A DNA stretch of 20,568 bases from a virus, in IMG/VR virus record IMGVR_UViG_3300034418_012497, positions 1 through 20,568 of that record; one strand, 5' to 3'. The translations under genes were made by a program, and so were the position numbers. Positions 3,505-19,907 of this stretch are shown here, in pieces. Under the pieces are notes generated by a model. It was not told the DNA's origin. It did no database searches and saw only the letters and a list, made by a program, of their open reading frames with translations. The first letter of the stretch is position 1; the number at the start of each line of letters is the position of its first letter.

Positions 3505-6500
3505 CTATTTTTTCAGTTCTTCAATTTCTTCTTTAAGAATATCTATTTGTTCCTGCTGTTCTTTAATAGCCTCAATCAGTAATCCAACCATATTACCATA
3601 TGCAACAGACTTGTACTCTTCATCAGTGCCAACAACTTCAGGAAGTACTTTTTCAACTTCTTGAGCAATAAGACCAGTCTGTCTTGGCGAATCCATATCA
3701 ACACGATCATAAGTAACACCACGAAGTTGCATCACTTTATCTAAAGCATTTGAAATAACTTCAATATTTTTTTTCAATTTAATGTCAGAGTAGGCAGTGA
3801 CATTTCCAGAAACGGTTAAATTACTACTACCATCTAATGTCATAGCAACTGAACCACCAGTACCTGGATTATTTTCAGCACTGTTATGAGAACCACCTTT
3901 GAACCAACTAAATCGACCACCAGATCTATAGTATAGAGTACCACTTTGAACCCCTAAAGCATAATATGTGGCATAGAGATTAATCATTTGACGAACTGAG
4001 GATCCAAAACTCAATGAACCGCCGCTGAAAGTGTCATCAGTATCAGATCTTAAGAAACTACCACTATTGATACCATCAAGTAAATCAGCATCCAACCCAG
4101 ATCCAGAACCATCATTTGTGGAGTGCCACACTTTACTAGTGGTTACGCTTACTGAGTTTTCATTGCCGCCGTCAATCGTGATGGTCCAAGGATCATAAAT
4201 GTCCGTCGCGTTGGTTTGATAACCTAGCGTCATGTTATGAACACGAACACCCGTATAATTTCCGTTGGCAATACTAATGTAGGCTTTACCGTTAGCGTCT
4301 CTACCCACGTAAATATCAGGTGACCCGGTTCCTGTGTAGATACACTTAGGTAATAACCACTGGTTAGTGCTGGGATACATGTACCCACCAACAACGTACG
4401 TATGTATTGTGTAGCTACTGTAAATGGATACAGTAACTTGGAACATGTGAGCACTGTTTGTGTTAAATGGAGCAGTACACCTGATCCTTCCTGATGCACC
4501 GGCCGTTGTTCCGTAAGTTGCTAGTGTTGCTCCAAAATTAGTATGGTGCTTACCGTCTAACAAGTCAGCATCTAAACCAGACCCAGAGCCATCAACGGTC
4601 TTAATAGCAGTAAGAATCTCCGACGCAGTTTGGTCTCCAGTAGCACCTGACTCTACATTAATAAACGCTCTAATTGCATCCGCAGTACCATGGCGGATGT
4701 AATTATCATTCCCAGTTTCCACCATGACTTTAGTCACACCAGAACTTACGTCATTGGCAGTGGTATTGAAGTAGTTGGCAAAGATATACCCAGAACTATG
4801 TCTTTTAACAATAGTATTGTTTGATGCAGAGACACTTGGTTGTGCCCCATCTAGCAAATCAGCATCTAACCCAGATCCAGCACCATCATTTCCTGCGTGC
4901 CATACCCTATAATTGGCAGCACCCATTGACCAACCACCAACTGCTATGTCATTTATCCCACCGTCTAGTCCAAAATAACAAGCATAATCACCTCCAACGT
5001 GGAAGGACATAAAGGCATCATTGCCAGAACCATTTGAATAACATTGGAGAGACGACTGATTACTAGAACCGGTAGCCATATTGGTGTTAGAGTAAAACTG
5101 TATAATATTTGAATATGTAGATACAGTATCACTAGCATCAGACCTTAAGAAACTTCCAGGGCTAATTCCACCAAGAGTAGTTGCGTCAGTCGTTGTTAGT
5201 CCACCAGCTCCTTGAGTACCTGTAGTTCCTTGAGAACCTGTGGGACCTGTTGTTCCTGTAGTTCCTTGAGAACCAGTGGGTCCTGTGGGACCAGTAGTTC
5301 CCGTAGTACCTTGAGAGCCTGTGGGACCAGTGCCACCAGTGGGACCTGTTGTTCCTGTAGTTCCTTGAGTACCTGTTGTTCCTTGAGAACCTGTGGGACC
5401 TGTGGGCCCAGTGCCACCTGTTGTTCCTGTAGTTCCTTGAGTACCTGTTGTTCCTTGAGAACCTGTGGGACCTGTGGGCCCAGTGCCACCTGTTGATCCT
5501 GTAGTTCCTTGCCTACCTTGTGTTCCTTGAGGTCCTGTTGGACCAGTGCCACCTGTTGATCCTGTAGTTCCTTGAGGACCAGTAGGACCTGTTGTTCCTG
5601 TAGTTCCTTGAGAACCTGTGGGCCCAGTGTCACCTGTAGTTCCTGTAGTACCTTGAGTACCTGTTGTTCCTTGAGAACCTGTGGGACCTGTGGGCCCAGT
5701 GCCACCTGTAGTTCCTGTAGTACCTTGAGTACCTGTTGTTCCTTGAGAACCAGTGCCACCTGTAGTTCCTGTAGTACCTTGAGTACCTGTTGTTCCTTGG
5801 ATACCTTGTGTTCCTTGGATACCTTGAATACCCTGAGTTCCTTGGATACCTTGTGTTCCTGTAATTCCTTGAATACCCTGAGTTCCTGTAATTCCTTGAA
5901 TACCTTGATCACCCTTATCACCAGTTCTGGCAAATGTTATAATTACATCTTCACTATCCGAAAAAGAAGTAACTCCAGAAAGATGGCTACAAGAAATTTT
6001 AAAATATCCGGTGGATTCTATACTTGATCCATCAATTGTAAATATTGCAAAGTCATCAGAATTTGTCCTATTAGATACTCTAAAATGACCTTTGATTGTA
6101 GATGTAGAGTCATCAATAACTCTTAAAAATGATTGAATATCTGTAGAGTTATCATCGGTATCATCAATATAAATTTGTGTTGCAGAACCTAGATTCAAAT
6201 TATTAAATTTTACAACTCCCGTACCAGGATCACTATCATCTGTGTTTGTGGAAAAGGTGTAATCAAATGTTGCACCACCAAAGTTACCATCAACACCCAC
6301 AGTTCCCTGAATTCCGGTTAAGCCTTGAGTACCTTGAATTCCTTGAACACCTTGAATCCCTAAAGTTCCCTGTATTCCTTGAATACCCTGGATACCTTGA
6401 GTGCCTTGGATACCTTGTATTCCCTGAGTACCTTGAATACCTTGTGTTCCTTGAGTACCTTGGATACCTTGTGTTCCTTGGATACCTTGTGTTCCTTGGA

Positions 6501-7620
6501 TACCTTGAATACCTTGTATTCCTTGAGTACCTTGGATACCTTGTGTTCCTTGGATACCTTGTGTTCCTTGGATACCTTGAATACCCTGGAGGCCTTGTAC
6601 TCCTTGGATACCTTGTGTTCCTTGAGTGCCTTGAATACCCTGAGTACCTTGGATACCTTGTGTTCCTTGGATACCTTGTGTTCCTTGGATACCTTGAATA
6701 CCCTGGAGGCCTTGTACTCCTTGGATACCTTGTGTTCCTTGAGTGCCTTGAATACCCTGAGTACCTTGAATACCCTGAGTACCTTGGATACCTTGAGTGC
6801 CTTGGATACCTTGTATTCCTTGAATACCCTGAGTACCTTGGATACCTTGAGTGCCTTGGATACCTTGTATTCCTTGGATACCCTGAGTACCTTGGATACC
6901 TTGAATACCTTGTGCACCAGTTGATCCAATACCACCTTGGATACCTTGTATTCCTTGAATCCCTAAAGTTCCCTGTATTCCCTGAGTACCTTGGATACCT
7001 TGTGTTCCTTGGATACCTTGTGTTCCTTGGATACCTTGAATACCTTGAGAGGCTTGAGTTCCTTGAGTACCTTGAAGACCTATCAATCCTGTAGTGCCTT
7101 GAGGACCTACAATTTTTCCTACATCAGACCATGTAGAACCTCCAAACGTCCAAAGACGACCAGTATCATCTGCAATAACACCATCACCAACCGAAGGAGG
7201 ATACCAAGACTCACTAGTATCATCTGAAGTTAATGTTGTAGCACCGGTGCCTTGAGTATTTGATGAGATATTTCCAACAATAGTAACCGAACTTCCATCT
7301 TGCCCTACAGTACCCTGAATTCCCAAATCACCTTGTATTCCTTGAATACCTTGTATTCCTTGTACACCTTGTACAGATGCATCTGCTAATGTAAGTTTTC
7401 CAGTAACACCTTGATCTACATCATAAGCAATGATGAAATCACTAGTACTTGGTGATGAAATTACTGATAAATCATTAATATTAACATCACTTGAAATTCC
7501 AGCGGTAGAAGCATATCCTATCTCACCAACCCATGAATGATCCCCATCAGAATTTGATGAGAGTACATATCCATCATTTGAAGGATTACCGAGATTATAG
7601 TTTCCTACTAGTTTTTTCAT
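3505..7620 (-). CDS. Collagen-like tail fibre with C-terminal S74 intramolecular chaperone (1371 aa)
   Basis: Probable receptor-binding fibre. The N-terminus [20 protein letters not shown] is of the type found in marine myophage fibres. Gly-X-Y tracts cover about residues 83-107, 172-442 (mostly GIQ and GTQ) and 563-805 (GPT, GTT, GTQ, GSQ), separated by globular inserts at 108-171 and 443-562. From 806 on there are fibre repeats, including three copies of [11 protein letters not shown] and two of GSFLRSD. The last 94 residues are an S74 (endosialidase-type) chaperone: SDIKLKKNI starts at Ser1278, the expected self-cleavage serine with a following Lys, then [15 protein letters not shown] and a terminal coiled coil. 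In this family the chaperone drives trimerisation and is then removed. The ATG is 3 nt after the 111-aa gene. The repeats make length variation likely. Confidence 0.93.
5206..5934 (-). repeat. Collagen-type tract, threonine/proline-rich (fibre residues about 563-805)
   Basis: Degenerate 9-bp periodicity encodes about 80 Gly-X-Y triplets. Pro, where present, is in the X position (GPT, GPQ) and Thr or Gln in Y. The tract begins with a short GIQ/GIT segment and becomes GTT/GTQ/GPT/GSQ. It differs in composition from the upstream GIQ/GTQ tract of the same protein. Confidence 0.9.
5344..5495 (-). repeat. Tandem duplication, 72-bp period
   Basis: Bases 5344-5423 and 5416-5495 are identical (80 of 80 by my reading), giving about 2.1 perfect copies of a 72-bp unit. 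This is 24 codons or 8 Gly-X-Y triplets, so the frame is kept. A closely related third copy lies near 5648-5709. The identity suggests recent slippage or unequal exchange. Confidence 0.8.
6295..7107 (-). repeat. Collagen-type tract, GIQ/GTQ-rich (fibre residues about 172-442)
   Basis: About 90 Gly-X-Y triplets, nearly all GIQ or GTQ with occasional GVQ, GLQ, GLT and GIG. Gln takes the Y position almost throughout and proline is nearly absent. The DNA shows 9- and 18-bp degenerate repeats, with one perfect 117-bp tandem duplication inside. Confidence 0.9.
6524..6768 (-). repeat. Perfect tandem duplication, 117-bp period
   Basis: Bases 6524-6651 equal 6641-6768 (128 of 128 by my reading), about 2.1 copies of a 117-bp unit. 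The unit encodes 39 residues or 13 Gly-X-Y triplets and includes the distinctive GVQGLQ step in each copy. The frame is preserved. Mismatches begin immediately outside on both sides (T/C on the left, G/A on the right), as expected for a recent duplication in an otherwise diverged array. Confidence 0.85.
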
Positions 7621-7960: not shown

Positions 7961-10900
7961 TTAACCCAGTGCTAAAATAAATGGTGTCATTTGATTGAAT
8001 AAACTTCTACTGAATGCTCTTCCAGAAATAGTTCCAGTGTTTTGGTTAATTGTGATATCATTACCAATCTTAAAGTTTCCAGCTTGATCAGTACTTGTGA
8101 AAACTACCTTACCTCCATTTCGTGTAATAATTTCATTTTCCTGAACCGGAACTCCTCCTCTTAAAGGTGTTGCTGTTGTAATATCATTACCAGAACCAAC
8201 ATATTCAAAAGTGTGAGAACTAGCTGATATTCTACTAACCTGATAGAAATATGCAGTTGAACTTACACCAACAGTATTATTCAAATTTTCATCAAGTGTT
8301 ACTGTAGTAATTCCAGATGAAATTGGTGTTGAACTATTTATTGTATAGTAGATGGGAGAAATGTTTGCCGTTGCTGTAGCAGTTACTCCGGAATCGGGTG
8401 CAGAGATAGTAACAGATGGTGCAGATGTATATTGATTTCCAGAACTAATAATAGTAATTTCACTTACTGTTCCACCATTTAAAGTTGCAAAAGCTGTAGC
8501 TGTAATTCCATTTGGCCCAGTTGGTGCTGTAATTGAAACTGTAGGTGCTGATGTATAACCACTACCACCGTTTGTAATGGTGATTGTTTCCACTGTGTAA
8601 TAAAGAGTATCAAAATAAACAACCTGGCCTTCATATGGTCTTGTAGTTGTAGTGATACCAATAGATACAGTATCAGTGCTTACAGAAGCTTCTGTATTTA
8701 CAGTCCCTGTAAATTGAAGATCACTTACACCATCTGCAACTAATCCATATGTTCCAAAGTCAGTATTACTATTAGTAAGAGAACATTGACCACCTTTATG
8801 GACTGTAATTCCTTCATTACAACAAACAGTAAATACACTAACTAATTGAGCATATCCATTATTAGTAACTGCAATACCAACTCCACCCTGATTATATTGT
8901 GTGTAACTATCAACAACCATTGATTTAAGAGACTCTGCACGATCTCCATCAATTCTCATTCCAGTTCCAGTTGTTGTATTACTAGTGCAATTTTGAACAT
9001 AAGGACTTTCCCATTTCCCTCCTCCAGTGTTTGGTGCTCCTTCTGGTGGAAATGCAACGGCAGCTGCTGGGGCAGTATGTCCGGTAAAGGTCATATTAGC
9101 CAGATAAGTTCCCTTATTTACATGAAAAATATCTTGAGTTGAATTGTTTGGAATAACAGTTACTGTCTTTAAGTTATCTCCTACAATGGAGACAAAATCT
9201 GGAACTTCAATTGGGTTATTCTCGTTATATGTACCAGAAAGAACTTTAATAGTTGTTCCAGTTTGAGCGATACTGACTGCAGCACCGATTGTAAGTTTTG
9301 CATTATCAATTGAAGTTCCATTATTACTATCAACACCATCTTTTGCAACATATAAAATATTTGGTGCGGAGTTAATACCAGTAGCTGAAGAATTGATAGT
9401 AACATTTTCACCAAGAACAATCTGTGAGTTACTAATGGTAACAATACCAACAGAAACGACATTATTGTCACCATCAATAGTGACAGAAGAACGACCAATT
9501 GTAAGAATTCCTGTGATTCTAGCATTTCCATCAACAAAAAGTGCTGTAGAACCAGTTCCAATTGTGACAGTTCCAATACCATTTGAAGCACCAAGAGTTG
9601 TAATTCCAGAAACAAAAAGATTTCTGTTGACTATAACATCTTGTTGAGCAGTAATAATTCCAATAGAATCAATATTAGTTACATCTTCATAAGTAAGAGT
9701 TCCACCAATGGTAACATTACCATTGATATTAATATTTCCATTTCCTGTAATGTCATTTCCATTCAGGTCTAAACTACCACCTAATTGTGGAGTCTGATCA
9801 CTAATAACATCAGATCCTCCTCCACTACCTAAAGCAGTACTAGCAATGCCAACCCATCTGGAGTTAGTTTGATCGTATATTAAAAGTTTTCCATCCCCAG
9901 TTGTTTGATCAAAACTTACATCATCCAAGTCCTTTACAGAACCAGCTCCACCACCACCAATAGTAGAAAGTTGAACTTGAATTCTATTTAAGAAAAGTCT
10001 GTAGTGTTTTTCTAAATCACTGAATGTTGCAAATCTTTCTCCAGTAGGAGTCAGTGGATCTTTTTTATCACCAACTTTTTGTTCAACTTCTGGTGGTTCA
10101 TTGAGTAAATAATTTTCTTTCAGTTCCTCCTGTGATTCTTTTATTTGATCAACAATATCATAAAGTTCCTTTTTTAGTGTCTTGAAATCTGTCTTCAAAA
10201 AAGAAACTTTATTCTCTACGAGTTTTTCTACAGATTTTATTTCTTTTCCAACTTTTTTCAGATCTTCATCATAATACTTAACTTCAGGCAGATTTGTAAT
10301 TTCTTCCTTCAGATCATTAAAATATTTGAGAAGAAGTTCATCAGTTTTTATACTTTCTTGACTATACTTCTCAAGTTGTTCTTGAACTGATTGTTTAAGC
10401 TTACTGTATTCACTACTAATTTGTTTCTTTAACTTTCTGTCATCATCTTTAAATTCATTATGGTATTCCCAAATTTTCTGTGAAGAATTTTTAAACTCTT
10501 CCCAGATTTTAGATTTCTCTTCTTCTAATTTATCACTTAGAGTTTTAATATCAACTTTATTTTCAAAGTTTTTTACGTCAAGTTTTTCTATTAGAGTATC
10601 AATATTAAAATTTAGTTTCTCCTTAAGAGTCCCAATTCTATCACCAATATTGGTAAAATTTTCATCAACAACATCAAAAGCTTCCTTTACCCAATTCAGA
10701 TTGGGTATTTCCGATCTAACTTTATCAATATCTTCTTCATAATACCTAACTTCTGGAAGGTTTGATATTGATTCGTCAATATAATCTCTTACTTCTCCAA
10801 TTTTGTTAGATACTTCTTCTAACTCATCTTCATAATATCTAACTTCAGGAACAACTGGAATTGATTCTCTTACTTGGCAAATGGAATCATGAACTCTTTC

Positions 10901-11269
10901 CAGTTCTTCATCATAATATTTTATTTCTGGTATATTTGGTATATCTTTTCTTACTTCTTCAATTAAAGAAACAATCTCTGTTAAATCTTCAAAGCTGACT
11001 GATTTTTCTTCTTCTACTTTGTCTTCTTTTACTTCTTGGATTGTTTCTGTCAAAAAATCTTGAACTGAAGGTAGTTCATTATTCTCAACAATTTCTTGAA
11101 TTGATGGATACTCTTCTTCGATTATTTCTTCTTCTACAATTTCCTCTTCAACTAAATCTTGGATAGAGGGAAGTTCTTTCTTTTCAATAAAATCTTCAAG
11201 GGAAGGGAGATTATCTTTACTGATAAAATCATTTAACGAAGGCAGATTTTCACTATTGTCTTTTGACAT
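7961..11269 (-). CDS. Large coiled-coil plus beta-helix tail fibre-like protein (1102 aa)
   Basis: Probable virion fibre. The acidic N-terminus has five copies of an [LY]PS-x-x-[DE]-[FLI] motif (LPSLNDFI 9-16, LPSLEDFI 21-28, LPSIQDLV 33-40, YPSIQEIV 54-61, LPSVQDFL 66-73). Four copies of PE[VI][RK]YY[DE] (114, 141, 172, 328) mark a spaced coiled-coil region to about 430. A Gly-rich hinge near 438-443 leads to VKDLDDVSFDQTTGDGKLLI, a fibre-type segment, then repeated strand-turn units (GNVTIGGTL, GITTLG, GSTALFVDGNARITG). From about 640, NILYVAKDGVDSNNGTSIDN begins a right-handed beta-helix-like domain with Asn/Ser/Gly-rich turns. The C-terminus has GGSGYTSAP-type repeats and ends with TINQNTGTISGRAFSRSLF. 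A GATAAATA late-promoter match precedes it. No depolymerase catalytic residues can be assigned. Confidence 0.83.
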   Translation of the reverse strand: MSKDNSENLPSLNDFISKDNLPSLEDFIEKKELPSIQDLVEEEIVEEEIIEEEYPSIQEIVENNELPSVQDFLTETIQEVKEDKVEEEKSVSFEDLTEIVSLIEEVRKDIPNIPEIKYYDEELERVHDSICQVRESIPVVPEVRYYEDELEEVSNKIGEVRDYIDESISNLPEVRYYEEDIDKVRSEIPNLNWVKEAFDVVDENFTNIGDRIGTLKEKLNFNIDTLIEKLDVKNFENKVDIKTLSDKLEEEKSKIWEEFKNSSQKIWEYHNEFKDDDRKLKKQISSEYSKLKQSVQEQLEKYSQESIKTDELLLKYFNDLKEEITNLPEVKYYDEDLKKVGKEIKSVEKLVENKVSFLKTDFKTLKKELYDIVDQIKESQEELKENYLLNEPPEVEQKVGDKKDPLTPTGERFATFSDLEKHYRLFLNRIQVQLSTIGGGGAGSVKDLDDVSFDQTTGDGKLLIYDQTNSRWVGIASTALGSGGGSDVISDQTPQLGGSLDLNGNDITGNGNININGNVTIGGTLTYEDVTNIDSIGIITAQQDVIVNRNLFVSGITTLGASNGIGTVTIGTGSTALFVDGNARITGILTIGRSSVTIDGDNNVVSVGIVTISNSQIVLGENVTINSSATGINSAPNILYVAKDGVDSNNGTSIDNAKLTIGAAVSIAQTGTTIKVLSGTYNENNPIEVPDFVSIVGDNLKTVTVIPNNSTQDIFHVNKGTYLANMTFTGHTAPAAAVAFPPEGAPNTGGGKWESPYVQNCTSNTTTGTGMRIDGDRAESLKSMVVDSYTQYNQGGVGIAVTNNGYAQLVSVFTVCCNEGITVHKGGQCSLTNSNTDFGTYGLVADGVSDLQFTGTVNTEASVSTDTVSIGITTTTRPYEGQVVYFDTLYYTVETITITNGGSGYTSAPTVSITAPTGPNGITATAFATLNGGTVSEITIISSGNQYTSAPSVTISAPDSGVTATATANISPIYYTINSSTPISSGITTVTLDENLNNTVGVSSTAYFYQVSRISASSHTFEYVGSGNDITTATPLRGGVPVQENEIITRNGGKVVFTSTDQAGNFKIGNDITINQNTGTISGRAFSRSLFNQMTPFILALG

Positions 11270-11283
11270 TTGTTTATTAGTAA

Positions 11284-11338
11284 TTTGATACTTTGGGATT
11301 TCTCTCCCTTCCCCTATTTATCTTTATCAAGTATCAAA
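11284..11338. repeat. Inverted repeat flanking the late promoter of the 1102-aa fibre gene
   Basis: TTTGATACTT (11284-11293) and AAGTATCAAA (11329-11338) are perfect 10-bp inverted arms separated by 35 nt. The right arm covers the stop codon of the 827-aa gene and the loop holds the GATAAATA site. No T-run follows the left arm in the transcribed direction, so it is not a convincing intrinsic terminator. It may be a weak mRNA structure or chance. Confidence 0.4.
11315..11322 (-). promoter_or_regulatory. Late-promoter octamer GATAAATA
   Basis: The minus strand reads GATAAATA in the 57-nt gap before the 1102-aa fibre gene, matching the NATAAATA form of T4-like late promoters. The ATG at 11269 lies 45 nt downstream. 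In this family recognition would be by the phage gp55 sigma factor with the sliding clamp. Neither gene is in the window. Confidence 0.65.
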
Positions 11339-13810
11339 GAAGAACATTTGCCATAATCTACAATTTTCTTTCACAGTTCCAAAATATTCAGAAGCTGAAT
11401 GAATTGCACTAGCGTCAAAAAGAACAAGACGATTATAGACATTTCCAAGAACATCTACAGGTTCAAAAGGAGTTCCATCAAGATGACAATCACCTGGATT
11501 TGTTTCTGGATTCCAAGAAATATCCCAACCAGGTTCATAGTAAGTTCTAGCTCTACTTTGTTTATGAGCATACAATGTAGTTCCACATTGGAATGGTGCA
11601 TTAGGAGTGAGATATAACATTCCACCCCATTGTTGACTATCACAATGCCAAACACGAGGTTGTCCAGACCAACAATATTGGAATCTACCATTCATTCCAT
11701 GTTCTTCCCACTTTGTAATCTTTTTACCCATAATCTCCTCAAATCTTTCTTTGAGGCCAGGAAATAAGAATTGTTTGTGAGTTCTATTTCCAATATAACC
11801 CCTACCTAATCCACCGATATCAAAATCTTGATCTAATGCAAACTTTCTGATTTCATCAGGATTTTCGTAGAAATTATCAACAATCCAAGAAGTTGGATTG
11901 GGTTTTGAACTGAATGAAGAAAACACCATAGGTTTTTCTTCTACAACTGTTTCATTATCTCCATAGTTTTCTATAAAGATATAATCGGAAATATAAATTC
12001 TTCGAATGGTGTCAATTTGATTTTCTGTCAAATCATCCTTTCCAAATTTCTTCTTCGAACAATTGACAATTTCATCAACACCAAATCTTTGATTAATATC
12101 CTTCTTAAAAATCACTTCAAATGAATCATAATTTCTTTGATCAATAAAGTGAGTTTGTGGATACCAATGATGAACTTGTTGATCACTAGTGATTTTATCC
12201 AGATTTTGAATTACTGCCTTAATAATTTCATCTTTCGTAGATTTTTCAATGTCCAAATCAAGTGATTCAAGAATGTCTTGACCCCAAAGATTGTGATAAT
12301 TTGGAATGACAAAGTAATCATTCATCAAAGAAATGAATCTATCAATTGGATCATCAAGAACAACTATTGGTCTTACTTTTGGTCTATCTTCAACTACCTG
12401 ACATTTCTCAAAATGACCCTTAATTGATGCAGACCCATTCTTCGGAATCTCAAACCAATAATCATTTTTATCATTGTTCAAAGAATATAATCTTGGAAAT
12501 GGTGATTCAATACACCATTCACATTTACACTCTTTGAACAAATTATACTTTTTTACAGTCTCTTCCTCCTCTGAAATGAAAGTAAAATCAGTACAAAGTT
12601 GTGTATGAGGTTGAACAGATTTCATCTTTTCAATCAATTCTTCTGAAACTAAATCAGGATGTACCCACCAATCTTCAAAATTACTTACACCATCTGGTGA
12701 AACATCATTAATAACTAAAAGATATCCCTTATCTTCTAAAAACTTTCTGGATTTTTCACGATATGATTTTGAAACATCGACATAGTAGTCATGTTCATAT
12801 GTAATGACCGCAAACTTATACTTATCGAAAGGAATTTTTAACATACATTCATAAGTATGTTTTGCTGGTTCAATATCTAACTGAAGATAGTCAATAATAT
12901 TAGACTGAAAATTATTTTGAATAAATTCATCATAATCAAGATCTAGAGCGTCTTGTTGATAAATTGGATTTTTTCTATTATCCCTGTAGTTTCTAATAAA
13001 TTTCTCATCATATTCAAGGGAAACACCTGTCCAACCATAATCTCTTTCAAGAAGTGCTGTATTATTTCCTTTAAACGGATCTGCTCCACCAATTTCAAGA
13101 TAAGTTCCATTTCTTTTTCCATTCAAAACGGAGAGGATAAACATATCTTGATAGACTTGAGAGAAATTTCTCTCGATATTTTCAGAACCTTTGAACTTAA
13201 ACTTAAGTTTTTTATGATCTTCCTTATTGTAAGTGAAGAAAGCTTGTGATTCTGGACCAGAACCAAGACTTGTGATATTAACCTCTACCAAGTCTTTATG
13301 ATAATTATCCATCACATCCCAATAATTATCTACGAGGTGATGGAAAAGTTCCCTACTTTCCATGTTTTTACCCCAGTTCCAACTCACAACAGCTTTGTTG
13401 AAAATAAGACCCCATAATCCATGGAATTCAGGAATTCCAATATCTTCAACTTCTTCTTTATAACAATTAATCCCAAGATTTGCATATGTATATGCATTTA
13501 CCCACTCTTTTCTCTGTTCATACAAACTAGAAAGTAAAAAATAAGCCTCAGGTCTGTTGGGAAGAAGATTTAGAGCGTTTTCAAGTAAAATCTTTTCAGT
13601 ATGATCTCTAGATGATTGTTTTCTATAACAAATAGATGCTCGAATCAAAGATTTATATGCACTGATATCATTTTCAGATCTCTCGGCACATCTTTGGTAA
13701 TATGTGTGACCAGCTGCATTATGTCCTTGATTTTCATACCAACTAGCCAAAGCATAATTCTTTTCTGGACTTTCAGTATCAAAACAAAAGTCAAGTAATT
13801 CCTTATTCAT
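11327..13810 (-). CDS. Four-part fusion: TPR, FkbM-like methyltransferase, sulfotransferase-like, 2OG-Fe(II) oxygenase-like (827 aa)
   Basis: Residues 1-170 show TPR-like helical pairs (ALASWYENQGHNAAGHTYY; PEAYFLLSSLYEQRKEW). Residues about 215-385 resemble an FkbM methyltransferase: SQVYQDMFILSV, then the SAM-loop pattern GTYLEIGGADPFKGNN, YLQLDIEPAKHTYE, FAVITYEHDYY and a late EDWWVHPDL. Residues about 448-620 resemble a sulfotransferase, with FEIPKNGSAS (5'-phosphosulfate loop type) and VVLDDPIDRFISLMNDY (3'-phosphate motif position, with Asp where Arg is usual). Residues about 625-827 resemble a 2OG-Fe(II) oxygenase of DUF6445 type (name recalled): WHCD gives His722-x-Asp724, DASAIHS gives His804, and Arg818 follows. 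A GGAGGA Shine-Dalgarno precedes the ATG, which overlaps the propeller gene by 8 nt. There is no signal peptide. Domain order is seen; substrates are unknown. Confidence 0.8.
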   Translation of the reverse strand: MNKELLDFCFDTESPEKNYALASWYENQGHNAAGHTYYQRCAERSENDISAYKSLIRASICYRKQSSRDHTEKILLENALNLLPNRPEAYFLLSSLYEQRKEWVNAYTYANLGINCYKEEVEDIGIPEFHGLWGLIFNKAVVSWNWGKNMESRELFHHLVDNYWDVMDNYHKDLVEVNITSLGSGPESQAFFTYNKEDHKKLKFKFKGSENIERNFSQVYQDMFILSVLNGKRNGTYLEIGGADPFKGNNTALLERDYGWTGVSLEYDEKFIRNYRDNRKNPIYQQDALDLDYDEFIQNNFQSNIIDYLQLDIEPAKHTYECMLKIPFDKYKFAVITYEHDYYVDVSKSYREKSRKFLEDKGYLLVINDVSPDGVSNFEDWWVHPDLVSEELIEKMKSVQPHTQLCTDFTFISEEEETVKKYNLFKECKCEWCIESPFPRLYSLNNDKNDYWFEIPKNGSASIKGHFEKCQVVEDRPKVRPIVVLDDPIDRFISLMNDYFVIPNYHNLWGQDILESLDLDIEKSTKDEIIKAVIQNLDKITSDQQVHHWYPQTHFIDQRNYDSFEVIFKKDINQRFGVDEIVNCSKKKFGKDDLTENQIDTIRRIYISDYIFIENYGDNETVVEEKPMVFSSFSSKPNPTSWIVDNFYENPDEIRKFALDQDFDIGGLGRGYIGNRTHKQFLFPGLKERFEEIMGKKITKWEEHGMNGRFQYCWSGQPRVWHCDSQQWGGMLYLTPNAPFQCGTTLYAHKQSRARTYYEPGWDISWNPETNPGDCHLDGTPFEPVDVLGNVYNRLVLFDASAIHSASEYFGTVKENCRLWQMFFFDT

Positions 13811-14777
13811 TGATAAAATCCTCCACTACTTTCTTAGAAACTTTTAAAATATATGCCGCATTATCTTGACCACCAAATGTGATCAAAAAATCTTCACCAA
13901 AAGAATACATTCCACAACAAAATTCAATTTTCATATTCATGAAAGAGAATAATTTTGAAACTTTTCTGTTTACAAAATTCTTATCCCAAAAGACAAATCT
14001 ATGTCTATATGTTGCATCTTTCATTCCTCTTTCAGAAGAATACATATCTGTTTCGTGAATGATGGTAAGATAACCACCATTAAATTTTATAACCTGAGAA
14101 CCTCCTCTCATGTGACCACTGATTTGATCATCATATCCATTGGTTTCGAAAACTTCCGTTTCTTTACCCTCTTCAAATTTCATCAATGCTGTCGGATTTG
14201 TCCATTTCAATAGATGAAAAGGTTTGTCCTCAATTGGAGTACAGTTTTTCATACAGTACTCATTGTCGGGATATACTCCTGGAATTCTATATCTTGATAC
14301 TTCCTTTACATTTCTATCCTCAATTTTCAACTCAGAAATTTCCATTCTTCCAGTACCAATATTATCAAGATCTCTCCTGACACCGATACCATACAATTTA
14401 CCACCCCAATCCACTAATCTGACATCTTCAAGACCGACAAAATCCCATTGGGGTTGATAAGTATCAAACTCCGACGTATCTACCTTAGAATACCAAATAA
14501 TATCCAAATCATCATTCAATTCGGCAACATAGTTCCAAGTTCTGAGATGATTATCTTGTTCTGGATGAATATATGAGAGTGGACCCCACATATGTTCAAA
14601 TCTGTTCAATTCTGCATGATACAGTGTGTAATTTACATTTCTTATATTTACCAGTATCTTACCATTTCTTACAATAACTGACGGGTTTGTAAGAGCTGGT
14701 CCTGAAAGGTCTTCTGAGTTAGTTAAAAGAGGTTTTATAACACCACCATTAGCTAACGCTAATTGAGTAAAAGTCAT
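13803..14777 (-). CDS. GH130-like five-bladed beta-propeller protein (324 aa)
   Basis: Resembles the GH130 / glycoside phosphorylase-like propeller fold. Blade-start motifs are visible: NPSVIVRNGKILVNIRN (31-47), GLEDVRLVDWGGKLYGIG (115-132, the position of the family's E-D-x-R), LLKWTNPTALMKF (189-201), RGGSQVIKFNGGYLTIIHE (224-242), and FCCGMYSFGEDFLITFGGQD (286-305). Family members act on mannoside linkages by phosphorolysis or hydrolysis, but related propellers exist whose activity is not known, so no substrate is claimed. The length suits a single propeller. Its start faces the plus-strand oxygenase gene across 63 nt, and its end overlaps the 827-aa fusion by 8 nt, which indicates a two-gene unit. 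No strong Shine-Dalgarno is seen. Confidence 0.65.
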   Translation of the reverse strand: MTFTQLALANGGVIKPLLTNSEDLSGPALTNPSVIVRNGKILVNIRNVNYTLYHAELNRFEHMWGPLSYIHPEQDNHLRTWNYVAELNDDLDIIWYSKVDTSEFDTYQPQWDFVGLEDVRLVDWGGKLYGIGVRRDLDNIGTGRMEISELKIEDRNVKEVSRYRIPGVYPDNEYCMKNCTPIEDKPFHLLKWTNPTALMKFEEGKETEVFETNGYDDQISGHMRGGSQVIKFNGGYLTIIHETDMYSSERGMKDATYRHRFVFWDKNFVNRKVSKLFSFMNMKIEFCCGMYSFGEDFLITFGGQDNAAYILKVSKKVVEDFINE

Positions 14778-14840: not shown

Positions 14841-15404
14841 ATGAAAGGTGAATGGTGCTACTTCAAATCGTATTTTTCTCCAGAGTATTGTGATAAACTC
14901 ATTAGTCAAGCTAAAAAACTGAAATTTCAAGATGCCTTTCTGGGAGTTTATGGTGAATCAGAAGTTCCAAATTATAGAAGATCTAACATTGCCTGGATGT
15001 ATCCTAACGAATTTCCAGATTTCTATACAAATTTGTGGAAAATGGCAGATCAAGCGAATGAAGAATGGTTTGGATTTGATATTGATGGTCTAGAACATGT
15101 TCAGTTTGCAGAATATAATTTAGAAAATAGAGGAGAATATAAAAAGCATCATGATGTTTTTTGGATCAACAATGGCCCAAAGCATAGAAAACTAACAGCA
15201 GTTATTCAATTAACTGATAATGAGTATTATGATGGTTGTGATTTAAAATTATATGAATGTAATAGTCATCCAAATAGGGAAGAAATTAGACAACAAGGAA
15301 CTGTCATATTCTTCCCATCCTGGTTATATCATTCGGTAGAACCAATTATTAGTGGAACTCGATATAGTGCTGTTGCTTGGTTTGAAGGTCCTAAATGGAA
15401 ATAA
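14841..15404 (+). CDS. 2OG-Fe(II) oxygenase, prolyl-hydroxylase-like (187 aa), only plus-strand gene
   Basis: Putative Fe(II)- and 2-oxoglutarate-dependent hydroxylase. The metal triad is visible: His103-x-Asp105 in KKHHDVFW and His164 in SWLYHSVEP, with Arg174 in SGTRYSAVAW at the 2-oxoglutarate carboxylate position. YYDGCDLKLYE (129-139) matches the GG-x-L-type strand between them, here with Gly-Cys-Asp. The length is normal for single-domain phage PKHD-type enzymes. AAGG lies about 7 nt before the ATG. It runs against all other genes: divergent from the propeller gene (63-nt gap) and ending directly against the 82-aa gene (TAA at 15402-15404, opposing stop at 15405-15407). This suggests an independently acquired cassette. 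The substrate is unknown. Confidence 0.8.
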   Translation: MKGEWCYFKSYFSPEYCDKLISQAKKLKFQDAFLGVYGESEVPNYRRSNIAWMYPNEFPDFYTNLWKMADQANEEWFGFDIDGLEHVQFAEYNLENRGEYKKHHDVFWINNGPKHRKLTAVIQLTDNEYYDGCDLKLYECNSHPNREEIRQQGTVIFFPSWLYHSVEPIISGTRYSAVAWFEGPKWK

Positions 15405-15669: not shown

Positions 15670-15677
15670 TATTTAGT
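15670..15677 (-). promoter_or_regulatory. Late-promoter-like octamer ACTAAATA
   Basis: The minus strand reads ACTAAATA followed by an A-run, ending 16 nt before the ATG at 15653 and overlapping the TAA of the upstream oxygenase gene. It differs from NATAAATA by one base and has the same CTAAATA core as the site at 3481-3488, so a CTAAATA variant may be used by this phage. Confidence 0.4.
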
Positions 15678-16365
15678 TTCCACGATCATAAGCATAGTGT
15701 GCCCTATACCCATCTTGTAAAACATAGTGGAAAAAGATTTGGTGATAGTATAAAGTTCTATCCACAATATCACCAGGCATTGATTCACGCCAGTGAGGAC
15801 GTTCACAACCTTTATAGATCATTCCATCTCCAGGTTTAAGAATTACTTTCTTATTTTTACCCTTTTTGATAACCTTAGTTTTCTTTTTTGGATCGTCATA
15901 AACATCAGGTGTCTTGATCCAAATAGGCCAAGATTCTTTGATATTGGAACCAATATGAACGGTCACTGAGATTTCACAAGCAGGTCTATCTGCATGATTT
16001 GATAATGCTTGTCCTGGATTATAGAACCTATCATAATAATAAGTATTGTAAAGTTTCCTACCGATTGCCTCCTCAAGTCTCAATCTTACTTGAGAGTGAA
16101 AGTACTTGTATGGAGGATAGTAATATCTAGAGGTAGATCCCTCTACTTGATTTTCTAATGGAGCATGATTGAACTTATCAAGACTTCCATAATAATTATA
16201 TTGACCTTTTTCTTTTGGAGGATCACATTTCAAATCCTTTGGATTACAAAGTTTTTTGATAACTAGATATCCGTCTCTGTCAAATTGTTCGTGACCCGTA
16301 ATTGATGTATAGGAGTTGATAAATTCTTGTAGATCAATATCCTTCTGTGTCATTCCTTCTGCCAT
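15673..16365 (-). CDS. 2OG-Fe(II) oxygenase-like protein (230 aa)
   Basis: Putative Fe(II)/2-oxoglutarate hydroxylase. YYYDRFYNPGQALSNHADRP contains His124-x-Asp126; GDGMIYKGCERPHWRE supplies His191, and Arg203 (IVDRTLYYHQIFFH) could bind the co-substrate. Between them is a lysine-rich insert (about 159-173), unusual for the fold. I start it at 16365 (MAEGMTQKDI) rather than at 16422: GAGGT lies about 6 nt before this ATG, while the longer form would run back into the upstream oxygenase gene. The gap to that gene is 7 nt, so the two oxygenases are probably made from one message. Substrate unknown; free amino-acid or peptide hydroxylation are both possible. Confidence 0.75.
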   Translation of the reverse strand: MAEGMTQKDIDLQEFINSYTSITGHEQFDRDGYLVIKKLCNPKDLKCDPPKEKGQYNYYGSLDKFNHAPLENQVEGSTSRYYYPPYKYFHSQVRLRLEEAIGRKLYNTYYYDRFYNPGQALSNHADRPACEISVTVHIGSNIKESWPIWIKTPDVYDDPKKKTKVIKKGKNKKVILKPGDGMIYKGCERPHWRESMPGDIVDRTLYYHQIFFHYVLQDGYRAHYAYDRGN

Positions 16366-16372
16366 AATTACC

Positions 16373-17008
16373 TCATTTCCAACGATTTCCCACAACCCAA
16401 CCAACAATACTCTTACGAACACCCTGAGTTACTTTTTGAACTCTGTGTTGAGTTCGTGAATCAAAAAGAGTAATCAAACCTCTATGTCTTGGTGCAATAT
16501 AGGGTTTTCCAGTTTCATCAAGTAGTTGAAGATTACCTCCACGATAATCTTCTGGATCGGAGAGTAGTAAACTGAAAGAAAGTTTCCTTACTCTTTCACA
16601 GTTCTCATTGATAAAGTCCTGAGCGATTTGTTCTCCAGTTCCACGATTTCCAGTTCTTACTGGTTTATAATGAGTTGCTAAACCAGAATCATTATGCCAA
16701 CCATAATATTCACCTTCACCATAAACGGTATATTGTAGTGATTCCCCATCAATATTTTCTAGGTCGTAAAGGAAGTTTTCACGGTTTGCTCTTTGTACAT
16801 AATGCCAAACAAACCCAGCAACCCAATGTGATGTTGGAATCCAAGAATTTCTAGCATTTCGTTTTTCACGATCAACAGTTCCATAATCACCACCTCCTAC
16901 CTTTGAATCTTCAAGAAGTGGATCAAATTTTTCCTTCAAATCTTCTTCAATAGTATCTACGATATTGTTTGGAATATCTGTAAAATACCAAATTGATTGA
17001 TAAGCCAT
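16373..17008 (-). CDS. 2OG-Fe(II) oxygenase, PKHD-type (211 aa)
   Basis: Putative Fe(II)- and 2-oxoglutarate-dependent hydroxylase and the clearest of the four such domains here. YTVYGEGEYYGWHNDSG gives His105-x-Asp107; RKLSFSLLLSDPEDYRGGNL is the typical strand and GGNL turn; TLFDSRTQHRVQKVTQGVRK gives His188 and Arg198. The length matches PKHD-type hydroxylases. A late-promoter match (AATAAATA) lies 31 nt upstream. No strong Shine-Dalgarno is seen before the ATG at 17008, and upstream ATGs are out of frame. It is followed after 7 nt by a second oxygenase gene. Phage homologues are known but their substrates mostly are not; fibre proline or lysine hydroxylation is a guess. Confidence 0.85.
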   Translation of the reverse strand: MAYQSIWYFTDIPNNIVDTIEEDLKEKFDPLLEDSKVGGGDYGTVDREKRNARNSWIPTSHWVAGFVWHYVQRANRENFLYDLENIDGESLQYTVYGEGEYYGWHNDSGLATHYKPVRTGNRGTGEQIAQDFINENCERVRKLSFSLLLSDPEDYRGGNLQLLDETGKPYIAPRHRGLITLFDSRTQHRVQKVTQGVRKSIVGWVVGNRWK

Positions 17009-17918: not shown

Positions 17919-19907
17919 TCATACTGCTCGTCTCAATATAACGATTCCAGATCCACCTGATGCACCATTAGTCAAATTACTAGCACCTCCACCACCGCCA
18001 GTATTTGCATCCCCACTACCACCGCTGTTCGGTGTACCCACACCACCAGGAGATGCTGAAGGAGGATCAGAACCTGCCCCTCCACCACCAGCACCCCCGG
18101 GCCCGCCAGAACCCGGACTGTAAGGCCCTGCGGCAGCACCACCACCACCACCAGCAAACCATCTGCCAGGTGTTGGTCCTGGTGTTCCATATGATGGTGG
18201 AATAGTCCAACCAGGTGCTACAGCTCCTACACCACCGGTTCCACCAGTAGTGGCAGAACCATTAGCCCCAGTTCCACCAGCACCACCACCACCACCACCT
18301 CTAAATCTGCCATCGGGGTAAACTTCATAACCTAAACTGGCAGGATTTCCTTGTGGAGGACTAACTGGAGGATCATTACCCAATCCTCGTTTTGAAGGTG
18401 CAGTAGGTGAAGGAGAATGATTAGAACCTCCACCACTACCACCAGGACTACCTCCAGTTGGTGGATTAACATATGGAGGAGAAGATCCATGACCTTGACC
18501 ACCTCCACCTCCGGCAGATGTATTTCCCGAAAATGAACTTGACGAACCAGGAGTTCCACCACAAGTTGGAGTTGGATTGGGAACACCACCAGCACCACCA
18601 GCACCGACAGTCACGGGAGTAGAACTTGGTGAATTTACAACGACGGGTACTATTCTATAACCTCCTGCTCCACCACCACCAGCAGCCCTTGTATCTTTGT
18701 TGCCCGGATCCAAAAAGGAATTAGTTCCTCCACCACCTCCACCAGCGATTATAAGGCATTCAAATGTCACAGGTGCACTTGTAACAGTTATAGTGCCTGT
18801 GGATGTGAAAATGTGATATTTGTACCCATCACCAGGAGTGAATTCAGTACCTCCACTCGAATTTCCTGTAGGTGAAGGACTGGGAGTACCACCTGTGTTG
18901 GAGTATCGAAAAATAAAAAATCCAGAACCACCATTTCCGCCACTACCATTTCTAGTTCCGGCGCCTCCACCGCCACCACCAGAATTTGTTGCTGCATTGG
19001 CACCAGATGAGCCAGCAGATCCCCCACCACCTACAGGACTTGCATTTCCTCCATCAGCACCACCACCACCACCAGAATATCCTCCTGGTCTTATTGAAGG
19101 TATGGGAGTGAAGGTGGATGGAGCGACAAGACCTGCTCCACCGTTTCCTGCCGAAGCTGGTGGTGGTGGACCGGGGTTGCCGCCGAATGCTGCTCCGCCA
19201 CCACCACCAGCTTCATCGGGTTGATAATCACCACCAGGATTTCCCTGAGGTCCTCCAGTTCCACCGGGTTGTGGGACAGGGAACGAGGGGCCCTGTCCAC
19301 CGCCACCACCAGAACCTAATGGAGCTGGATCACCATACTGAATTGTACTACTTGGTGGAGGAAAATATTGTGGGTTTCCAGCACCACCACCGCCACCATA
19401 TCCAGCAGTGATTGAAAACGCGGGAACAGTAGTATCGGATCCAGGGCTTCCTTTGTTAACGGAGTTATAAGAAGGATTTGTACCACCGGCACCACCTCCA
19501 CCAATAGTTACTGTAGTACTAACTGGTCCTGTGATGGGAGTGGATCCTGTTAAAAAACCACCAGCTCCTCCTCCACCACCATCTCTTGGATCATAACCTG
19601 CAGAACCACCGCCAGCACCACCGCCAATTGCCATATACTCAATAGTTCCACTAGCACAATCACCAGTAAGAGGACCTGTAGATGTAAAAACATGATATTT
19701 GTATCCATCTCCAGGAGTAAACTCTGTACCACCTGTAAGATTCAACTCTTTTGCCGTACCCCTCAAGTCATCCATACTAATGGTTCCCGTAGGAATACTA
19801 GCAAGTGCCCTTACATCAGCATCATTGAGTGTAATTGTAGTGGTAGATGGATTACAAAGCTCAGTATTTACCTGAGACATTGAAATTGTTCCAGTAGGTA
19901 ATACCAT
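17919..19907 (-). CDS. Glycine-rich tail adhesin-like protein (662 aa)
   Basis: Probable fibre-tip or adhesin protein. Residues 1-52 form a short conserved head with an internal echo (LPTGTISMSQVNTEL, then IPTGTISMDDLRG) of a type common at the start of phage tail proteins. Two long modules follow, each opening with GGTEFTPGDGYKYH[VI]FTSTG (59 and about 350). Each continues with a beta strand and then runs of Gly with Ser, Pro and Ala (for example GGGGGAGG). The modules end GSGFFIFRYS and GGSGIVILRRAV. Such Gly-rich domains can fold as packed polyglycine-II helices, as in the S16-type gp38 adhesin; that comparison is by composition only. A GGAGGT site overlaps the stop of the preceding gene and precedes the ATG at 19907. 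Base composition is markedly GC-richer than its neighbours because of the Gly/Pro codons. Confidence 0.82.
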   Translation of the reverse strand: MVLPTGTISMSQVNTELCNPSTTTITLNDADVRALASIPTGTISMDDLRGTAKELNLTGGTEFTPGDGYKYHVFTSTGPLTGDCASGTIEYMAIGGGAGGGSAGYDPRDGGGGGAGGFLTGSTPITGPVSTTVTIGGGGAGGTNPSYNSVNKGSPGSDTTVPAFSITAGYGGGGGAGNPQYFPPPSSTIQYGDPAPLGSGGGGGQGPSFPVPQPGGTGGPQGNPGGDYQPDEAGGGGGAAFGGNPGPPPPASAGNGGAGLVAPSTFTPIPSIRPGGYSGGGGGADGGNASPVGGGGSAGSSGANAATNSGGGGGGAGTRNGSGGNGGSGFFIFRYSNTGGTPSPSPTGNSSGGTEFTPGDGYKYHIFTSTGTITVTSAPVTFECLIIAGGGGGGTNSFLDPGNKDTRAAGGGGAGGYRIVPVVVNSPSSTPVTVGAGGAGGVPNPTPTCGGTPGSSSSFSGNTSAGGGGGQGHGSSPPYVNPPTGGSPGGSGGGSNHSPSPTAPSKRGLGNDPPVSPPQGNPASLGYEVYPDGRFRGGGGGGAGGTGANGSATTGGTGGVGAVAPGWTIPPSYGTPGPTPGRWFAGGGGGAAAGPYSPGSGGPGGAGGGGAGSDPPSASPGGVGTPNSGGSGDANTGGGGGASNLTNGASGGSGIVILRRAV
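18796..18854 (-). repeat. Direct repeat: start of second glycine-rich module
   Basis: This stretch encodes the TEFTPGDGYKYHIFTSTG-type module start. It is closely similar at DNA level to 19675-19733, offset by 879 bp (293 codons), which marks an in-frame internal duplication of the tail adhesin-like gene. Confidence 0.75.
19675..19733 (-). repeat. Direct repeat: start of first glycine-rich module
   Basis: Partner of the repeat at 18796-18854. The DNA differs at several mostly third-codon positions while the protein differs little, so the module duplication is not very recent. Confidence 0.75.

What the first reader, a model, noticed from the sequence alone, without database searches (positions are those of the whole stretch)
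11327..13810. Four-part modification enzyme in one 827-aa phage protein
TPR-like helices, an FkbM-type methyltransferase region, a sulfotransferase-like region and a C-terminal Fe(II)/2OG-type region follow one another without a frame break. Seen directly: GTYLEIGGADPFKGNN, FEIPKNGSAS with VVLDDPIDRFIS, and WHCD...DASAIHS...R. Each family is known alone in phages and bacteria; I do not recall this combination as characterised. A single chain that could methylate, sulfate and hydroxylate would be a new kind of surface- or fibre-modifying enzyme.
Basis: partly seen in the sequence, partly recalled or inferred. Interest (0 to 1): 0.82.

Follow-up and report, generated by a model that had tools for sequence, protein, structure and literature searches.

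The report
Mix-and-match phage decorating enzyme
A marine phage makes one long protein in which a docking region and three enzyme-like regions are strung together; related phages keep its two ends but swap the enzymes in between, which points to a rapidly re-tooled machine for chemically decorating phage fibres or host surface sugars.

Summary
The 827-aa ORF is real. It runs on the minus strand (13810 to 11327), has a ribosome-binding site, overlaps its upstream neighbour by 8 nt, and is under purifying selection. The four parts hold up with different strength: an N-terminal TPR superhelix (strong); an FkbM-like methyltransferase, divergent and below Pfam's cut-off; a sulfotransferase fold, found only by structure and distant relatives; and a C-terminal DUF6445 domain with the HxD...H...R set of 2OG-Fe(II) oxygenases. 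The sulfotransferase-like part has lost the first Arg of the PAPS 3'-phosphate motif (DDPIDR), so sulfation is unproven. It is not a chimera: two other contigs carry TPR-FkbM-FkbM2-ST-2OG in 1075 aa. The protein belongs to an apparently undescribed T4-like cyanophage family. In 85 loci (16 architectures in 49 clusters) a TPR head and usually a 2OG tail enclose exchangeable methyltransferases, glycosyltransferases or the sulfotransferase, and a GH130-like gene lies upstream wherever the contig reaches. In two complete phage genomes every collagen-like gene lies within 7 kb of this operon. Best reading: a modular enzyme decorating the phage's own fibres. Rival: host surface polysaccharide modification. 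The substrate is inferred, not shown. New variant of a known kind.

The parts
11327..13810 (-). Whole gene: 827-aa TPR / FkbM-like / sulfotransferase-like / 2OG-like chain (stop codon 11327-11329)
   Evidence: RBS and start; selection
13820..13824 (-). GGAGG ribosome-binding site 9 nt before the ATG; the gene's first 8 nt overlap the end of the upstream gene
13226..13810 (-). Residues 1-195: TPR-type helical head
   Evidence: PF13428 E=8e-5; model helices mostly pLDDT 83-97; Foldseek hits to TPR proteins, SPINDLY, OGT
12596..13198 (-). Residues 205-405: FkbM-like methyltransferase module
   Evidence: PF05050 E=0.039, below cut-off; 22 of 40 relatives hit it, best 1.4e-4; SAM-motif match to a Pfam-proven FkbM module E=2.9e-5; Rossmann-type alternation
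11960..12538 (-). Residues 425-617: sulfotransferase-like module
   Evidence: Foldseek BFVD top hits sulfotransferases E=1.9e-5; PDB best NDST1 E=0.06; homologous to L089, which hits PF03567 E=0.012
12425..12448 (-). IPKNGSAS (residues 455-462), 5'-phosphosulfate-loop-like motif
   Evidence: PKN and the first Ser invariant in five ST relatives
12329..12355 (-). DDPIDRFIS (residues 486-494): 3'-phosphate motif with Arg to Asp at its first position
   Evidence: D in window and L083, N in L093, R in L089/L090
12155..12172 (-). HHWYPQ (residues 547-552), invariant HHxxPQ motif
11330..11911 (-). Residues 634-827: DUF6445-type 2OG-Fe(II) oxygenase-like tail; H722, D724, H804, R818
   Evidence: PF20043 28.7 bits against cut-off 24 for the isolated domain; 40 of 40 relatives hit it; phrog_1644 E=6.5e-31; motif conservation
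13803..14777 (-). Constant partner gene: 324-aa GH130-like protein (P324)
   Evidence: 25 of 40 homologs hit PF04041, best 7.1e-5; invariant WxFxGLEDxR; present in 82 of 85 loci
11315..11321 (-). ATAAATA, T4-late-promoter-like, between this gene and the tail-fibre gene
7961..11269 (-). Tail-fibre protein (1102 aa), next gene downstream; candidate substrate
   Evidence: phrog_17885 E=1.5e-148
3505..7620 (-). Collagen-like fibre (1371 aa, 86-triplet G-X-Y run); candidate substrate

Best explanation
This is a modular modification enzyme of a T4-like cyanophage. SHOWN by sequence or structure comparison: a TPR head, an FkbM-like methyltransferase, a sulfotransferase-fold module and a DUF6445 2OG-type tail on one chain; a GH130-like gene immediately upstream; across relatives the head and its GH130-like partner evolve together while transferase modules and the 2OG tail are exchanged. 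INFERRED: the TPR head docks the protein substrate (as in O-GlcNAc transferase) and/or the GH130-like partner; the 2OG tail hydroxylates a residue or sugar; the middle modules add methyl groups, sugars or, in this phage, possibly sulfate to a glycan. The most likely target is the phage's own collagen-like or tail fibres, encoded directly downstream; swapping modules would change the decoration and so adsorption or resistance to attack.
For: Anatomy. Exchangeable modules, all glycan- or protein-decorating types (FkbM, Methyltransf_24, GT25, GT17, GT2). GH130-like partner in every locus whose contig reaches it. Co-evolution: identity of partner and TPR head correlates at r=0.93, but TPR with FkbM 0.69 and with 2OG tail 0.70; L009/L058 share 95% in the 2OG tail but 41% in the head. 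Fibre linkage: the gene stands at the head of a same-strand series with tail fibre and collagen-like fibre; in isolated phages DSL-LC02 and S-SCSM2R all four collagen-like ORFs of the whole genomes lie within 7 kb of the operon; 35 of 84 loci show a collagen-like ORF in the short flanks. T4-late-type ATAAATA within 100 bp upstream of the partner gene in 13 of 46 clusters against 1.0 expected. Precedent: mimivirus L230 hydroxylates and glucosylates collagen (PMC9546862).
Against: No activity or substrate was tested. In S-SCSM2R the operon sits beside nrd/ligase genes and the collagen-like gene is on the other strand. S-SCSM2R and DSL-LC02 also carry nucleotide-sugar and glycosyltransferase clusters that fit surface-polysaccharide work, and a homolog of this FkbM module lies inside DSL-LC02's cluster. 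The window has no exact ATAAATA in front of P324. The window's collagen repeat has almost no Lys and few Pro, so classical lysyl hydroxylation does not fit; Thr or Gln would have to be the sites. Sulfation is doubtful because of the Arg-to-Asp change.
Confidence: 0.45

Rival explanations
1. Host-surface modification: the chain decorates (methylates, sulfates, oxidises) lipopolysaccharide or capsular polysaccharide of the infected cyanobacterium, for example to exclude other phages.
For: Cyanophage gene clusters with glycosyltransferases, 2OGFeDO enzymes and O-methyltransferases have been interpreted as capsular-polysaccharide modification (PMC7824862); glycosyltransferases in the host-recognition cluster of pelagimyophages were proposed to alter the host surface (PMC7029224). 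The swapped modules include GT25 (Pfam: LPS biosynthesis) and FkbM types.
Against: The operon is tied to fibre genes in the window, in DSL-LC02 and in many contigs; the T4-late-type promoter enrichment fits virion assembly better than early surface change; the TPR head resembles that of protein-modifying SPINDLY/OGT, although a capsule-synthesis multienzyme (8qoy) is also among those hits.
Confidence: 0.35
2. The sulfotransferase-like module is a degenerate or repurposed domain that does not use PAPS; only the methyltransferase and 2OG tail act. (This can be true together with either substrate reading.)
For: First Arg of the RxPxxR 3'-phosphate motif is Asp in window and L083 and Asn in L093, but Arg in L089/L090; most relatives lack the module altogether.
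Against: dN/dS about 0.25 between window and L083; the PKN loop, the second Arg, the Ser and HHxxPQ are retained.
Confidence: 0.3
3. The C-terminal domain is a structural virion part ('minor coat protein') and the chain is a virion component, not an enzyme.
For: phrog_1644 and RefSeq cyanophage records carry the label 'minor coat protein'.
Against: HxD, H and R are nearly invariant; the same domain stands alone between GT11 and GT25 genes in S-SSM7, and between an alpha-1,2-fucosyltransferase and a GT25 gene in Sf-FS3; the other modules are enzyme families.
Confidence: 0.07
4. The 2OG domain serves to consume or tune 2-oxoglutarate, as proposed for cyanophage 2OG oxygenases and NtcA control.
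For: Published proposal (PMC3037559).
Against: Does not explain the fusion to TPR and transferases or the linkage to the GH130-like gene.
Confidence: 0.04

Closest known systems
Unfused or shorter homologs in isolated phages: S-SCSM2R SSCSM2R_195 (621 aa) and DSL-LC02 WJZ48257/WJZ48258
   Same: TPR head, FkbM-type module, DUF6445 tail, GH130-like gene directly upstream
   Different: S-SCSM2R has no middle module and is labelled 'CcmH/NrfG'; DSL-LC02 has another FkbM type and the tail as a separate gene; neither has the sulfotransferase-like module
Mimivirus L230 and animal LH3/PLOD3 (2OG lysyl hydroxylase fused to collagen glycosyltransferase)
   Same: A 2OG hydroxylase on one chain with a transferase in a virus that makes collagen-like proteins (PMC9546862); phage locus L073 even has GT25 fused to the 2OG tail
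   Different: Different 2OG family (DUF6445), added TPR head, methyltransferase and sulfotransferase-like modules; window collagen has almost no Lys
Cyanophage polysaccharide-modification clusters described for jumbo phages (PMC7824862) and the T4-like host-recognition cluster (PMC7029224)
   Same: Glycosyltransferases, 2OG enzymes and methyltransferases in a variable region
   Different: There as separate genes; here fused between a constant head and, usually, a constant tail, with a constant GH130-like partner. The fusion is not mentioned in the passages read
TPR-glycosyltransferases SPINDLY and O-GlcNAc transferase
   Same: TPR superhelix followed by a Rossmann-type transferase; top Foldseek hits
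   Different: The transferase is methyl- or sulfotransferase-like here, and the match probably rests mainly on the TPR part
Stand-alone viral sulfotransferases (Synechococcus phage ACG-2014f, Prochlorococcus phage P-SSM7)
   Same: Fold match E=6e-5 and 1.2e-4
   Different: About 12-19% identity; the window module is a domain in a multi-enzyme chain with an altered PAPS motif

Membership tests
TPR proteins (PF13428 and relatives) | Repeated antiparallel helix pairs | tested here: met
   Helices 2-182, mostly pLDDT 83-97; Foldseek to designed TPR proteins E=4e-6; PF13428 23.4 bits against cut-off 23.5
FkbM methyltransferase (PF05050) | Score over Pfam gathering cut-off | tested here: not met
   14.5 bits against 22.7
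FkbM methyltransferase (PF05050) | SAM-binding motif and Rossmann fold | tested here: met
   LEIGGADP motif aligned to a proven FkbM module, hhalign E=2.9e-5; strand-helix alternation 236-371
Sulfotransfer_2 (PF03567) | Score over Pfam gathering cut-off | tested here: not met
   No hit in the window; best relative L089 16.1 bits against 22
Sulfotransfer_2 (PF03567) | Sulfotransferase fold | tested here: met
   Foldseek BFVD E=1.9e-5, prob 1.00; six of eight hits at E<=0.001 named sulfotransferase. Weak against PDB (best E=0.06)
Sulfotransfer_2 (PF03567) | 5'-phosphosulfate loop PKxGxxS | tested here: met
   IPKNGSAS
Sulfotransfer_2 (PF03567) | 3'-phosphate motif RxPxxRxxS | tested here: not met
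   DDPIDRFIS: first Arg is Asp
2OG-Fe(II) oxygenase superfamily | HxD...H facial triad and 2OG-binding Arg | tested here: met
   H722, D724, H804, R818 at least 90% conserved
2OG-Fe(II) oxygenase superfamily | Double-stranded beta-helix fold | tested here: inconclusive
   Beta-rich, pLDDT mostly 70-94; profile match to proven phage 2OG enzymes weak (E=0.14); no separate fold search of this part
DUF6445 (PF20043) | Score over gathering cut-off | tested here: met
   28.7 bits against 24 for the isolated domain; 22 bits within the full chain
Collagen hydroxylase-glycosyltransferase (L230/LH3-like) | Hydroxylation and glycosylation of collagen-like protein | not testable with these tools
   Only genomic linkage shown

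The most novel reading that the evidence does not exclude
A phage-encoded combinatorial modification enzyme: a fixed TPR head with its GH130-like partner and a usually fixed 2OG tail form a socket into which methyl-, glycosyl- and sulfotransferase modules are recombined, giving each lineage its own covalent decoration of collagen-like fibres, the first such chain combining methyl, sulfate and hydroxyl chemistry.
Probability: 0.3. Interest if true: 0.82.

Novelty: new variant of a known kind. Interest (0 to 1): 0.62.

Why it matters
Cyanophages carry many unexplained 2OG oxygenases, FkbM methyltransferases and glycosyltransferases near their fibre genes, and no function for them has been demonstrated in the papers read. 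A family in which these activities are fused on one chain, with a constant upstream partner and freely swapped modules, ties them together and makes a testable prediction: fibre (or host-glycan) modifications should change exactly with the module present. Two isolated Synechococcus phages carry the operon (one fused, one split), so the question can be approached in culture.

Tried and rejected
Assembly chimera: rejected, since the five-part L083/L084 joins the same modules in the same order in other contigs. ST relatives in reference phages by sequence: none at E<=1, and none useful with L089 or L093 as query. ST relatives in bacterial genomes: 108 pattern hits, none confirmed. Sequence search of PDB with profiles of FkbM, 2OG, ST and P324: nothing meaningful; the vanadium-nitrogenase and Fab hits are taken as chance. 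A Sulfotransfer_2 match in the window itself: none. Profile comparison of the 2OG tail with the window's other 2OG enzymes was too weak to prove homology (E=0.14; 0.23). The sulfotransferase annotated in S-SCSM2R (SSCSM2R_276) is not detected with the ST profile. 'Minor coat protein' as an identity was rejected as a label without evidence of virion location. Literature searches found no description of this architecture, but the library lacks most subscription papers and all bioRxiv preprints.

Full report
OBSERVATION. The finding is an ORF of 827 codons on the minus strand, 13810 down to 11327. It starts with ATG behind GGAGG and overlaps the end of the gene before it by 8 nt. An open frame of this length is not expected by chance (about 6e-26 at the window's base composition). 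The window is the entire record: a 20,568-bp virus contig. A neighbouring virion gene (238-1593) has relatives mainly in Synechococcus T4-like phages (best about 36-40% identity).

DOMAINS. Residues 1-195 are TPR-like: PF13428 scores 23.4 against a cut-off of 23.5, the model is all-helical at high confidence, and Foldseek finds SPINDLY, O-GlcNAc transferase and designed TPR proteins. Residues 205-405 resemble FkbM methyltransferases but weakly (PF05050 14.5 of 22.7 bits; 22 of 40 relatives hit it, best 1.4e-4). The SAM-motif region aligns to a second module of the same family that is an undoubted FkbM member (that module scores 7.8e-19). Residues 425-617 have no significant family hit. Two stand-alone relatives in other viral contigs (L089, L090) weakly hit PF03567 Sulfotransfer_2. 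An AlphaFold model from five sequences (pLDDT 68, pTM 0.71) finds sulfotransferases first in PDB, though weakly (NDST1 E=0.06), and clearly among viral models (E=1.9e-5; of eight hits at E<=0.001 six are named sulfotransferase, one GT25, one unnamed). In the full-length model this part is poorly resolved. Residues 634-827 are a DUF6445 domain (28.7 of 24 bits in isolation; phrog_1644 E=6.5e-31) with H722, D724, H804 and R818 conserved. The fold is beta-rich, but a double-stranded beta-helix was not separately proven.

A CAVEAT ON SULFATION. The loop IPKNGSAS, the second Arg and Ser of the 3'-phosphate motif, and HHWYPQ are kept, but the first Arg of RxPxxR is Asp in the window and in L083 and Asn in L093; only L089/L090 keep Arg. 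From general knowledge of sulfotransferases this Arg contacts the 3'-phosphate of PAPS. The module is under purifying selection (dN/dS about 0.25), so it does something, but PAPS use is not to be assumed.

A MODULAR FAMILY. Eighty related loci were fetched, then others by motif. Profiles made from them give the architectures. In 85 loci with the TPR head (window included), a 324-aa GH130-like gene (P324) lies upstream in 82; in the other three (L047, L069, L072) the contig begins inside the TPR gene. After reduction to 49 clusters at 90% P324 identity, 16 arrangements occur: TPR-FkbM-2OG in 21, TPR-FkbM-FkbM2-2OG in 6, and smaller numbers with a class-I methyltransferase, GT25, GT17, GT2, other FkbM types, split genes or no tail in the fetched stretch, and the two sulfotransferase forms: the window (TPR-FkbM-ST-2OG) and L083/L084 (TPR-FkbM-FkbM2-ST-2OG, 1075 aa). 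Pfam confirms GT17 (1.7e-11), GT25 (4.9e-10), Methyltransf_24 (2.6e-12) and FkbM modules. The loci were chosen for similarity to the window, so the counts are not frequencies in nature.

RECOMBINATION. Over 1596 pairs of loci, identities of P324 and the TPR head correlate at 0.93, but the head correlates at only 0.69 with the FkbM module and 0.70 with the 2OG tail. L009 and L058 share 95% in the tail while their heads share 41% and their P324 53%. So P324 and the TPR head behave as one inherited unit and the rest is exchanged more freely.

CONTEXT. In the window the gene stands in a same-strand series: P324, this gene, a 1102-aa tail fibre, a 111-aa protein, a 1371-aa collagen-like fibre (86 G-X-Y triplets), then further genes including a virion protein. 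In DSL-LC02 and S-SCSM2R, read completely, all four collagen-like ORFs (three in one cluster, one in the other phage) lie within 7 kb of the operon. 35 of 84 loci show a collagen-like ORF in their short flanks. The T4-late-type ATAAATA occurs within 100 bp upstream of P324 in 13 of 46 clusters against about 1 expected; the window itself has it in front of the tail-fibre gene but not in front of P324. Against a simple fibre story, S-SCSM2R's operon is beside nrd genes and both phages carry nucleotide-sugar and glycosyltransferase clusters.

MECHANISM. Most likely the TPR head binds a protein substrate and/or P324, the modules act one after another on the same site or glycan, and the 2OG tail supplies a hydroxyl. 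The adjacent fibres are the favoured target (0.45), host surface polysaccharide the main rival (0.35). The window's collagen repeat is rich in Thr and Gln with almost no Lys, so if it is the substrate, Thr-linked glycans are likelier than hydroxylysine-linked ones; this is inference.

KNOWN AND NEW. Viral enzymes that hydroxylate and glycosylate collagen on one chain are known from mimivirus L230 (PMC9546862). Cyanophage clusters with glycosyltransferases, 2OG enzymes and methyltransferases as separate genes are known and were read as capsule modification (PMC7824862), and the hypervariable host-recognition cluster is known (PMC7029224). Searches found no description of the fused, swappable family. 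I file it as a new variant of a known kind.

Noticed in passing
window 13803-14777 (-): GH130-like gene (P324) found upstream of the TPR protein in 82 of 85 loci; it co-evolves with the TPR head (r=0.93), and only three reference phages have a detectable homolog.
   Followed up: yes
window 14841-15404 (+), 15673-16422 (-), 16373-17008 (-): Two further 2OG-FeII_Oxy_3 genes (E 8e-15 and 4e-12) and a gene of phrog_2954, labelled 'ferrochelatase', in the same fragment.
   Followed up: partly
L073:5163-9405: A 944-aa methyltransferase-TPR-FkbM-GT2 chain followed by a GT25-2OG chain: a GT25 fused to a 2OG domain recalls collagen hydroxylase-glycosyltransferases.
   Followed up: partly
L098 (Sf-FS3), L099 (S-SSM7): Stand-alone DUF6445 oxygenase genes lie between a fucosyltransferase/GT11 gene and a GT25 gene.
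   Followed up: no
L089, L090: Stand-alone sulfotransferase-like genes lie in a long same-strand run of about 200-270-codon ORFs; not identified further.
   Followed up: no
S-SCSM2R SSCSM2R_195, PQ898602.1:165855-167720: Annotated as cytochrome c biogenesis CcmH/NrfG, probably because of the TPR head; it is the TPR-FkbM-2OG chain.
   Followed up: yes
window 17919-19907 (-): A 662-aa Gly/Pro/Ser-rich repetitive ORF with no relatives among the fetched loci.
   Followed up: no
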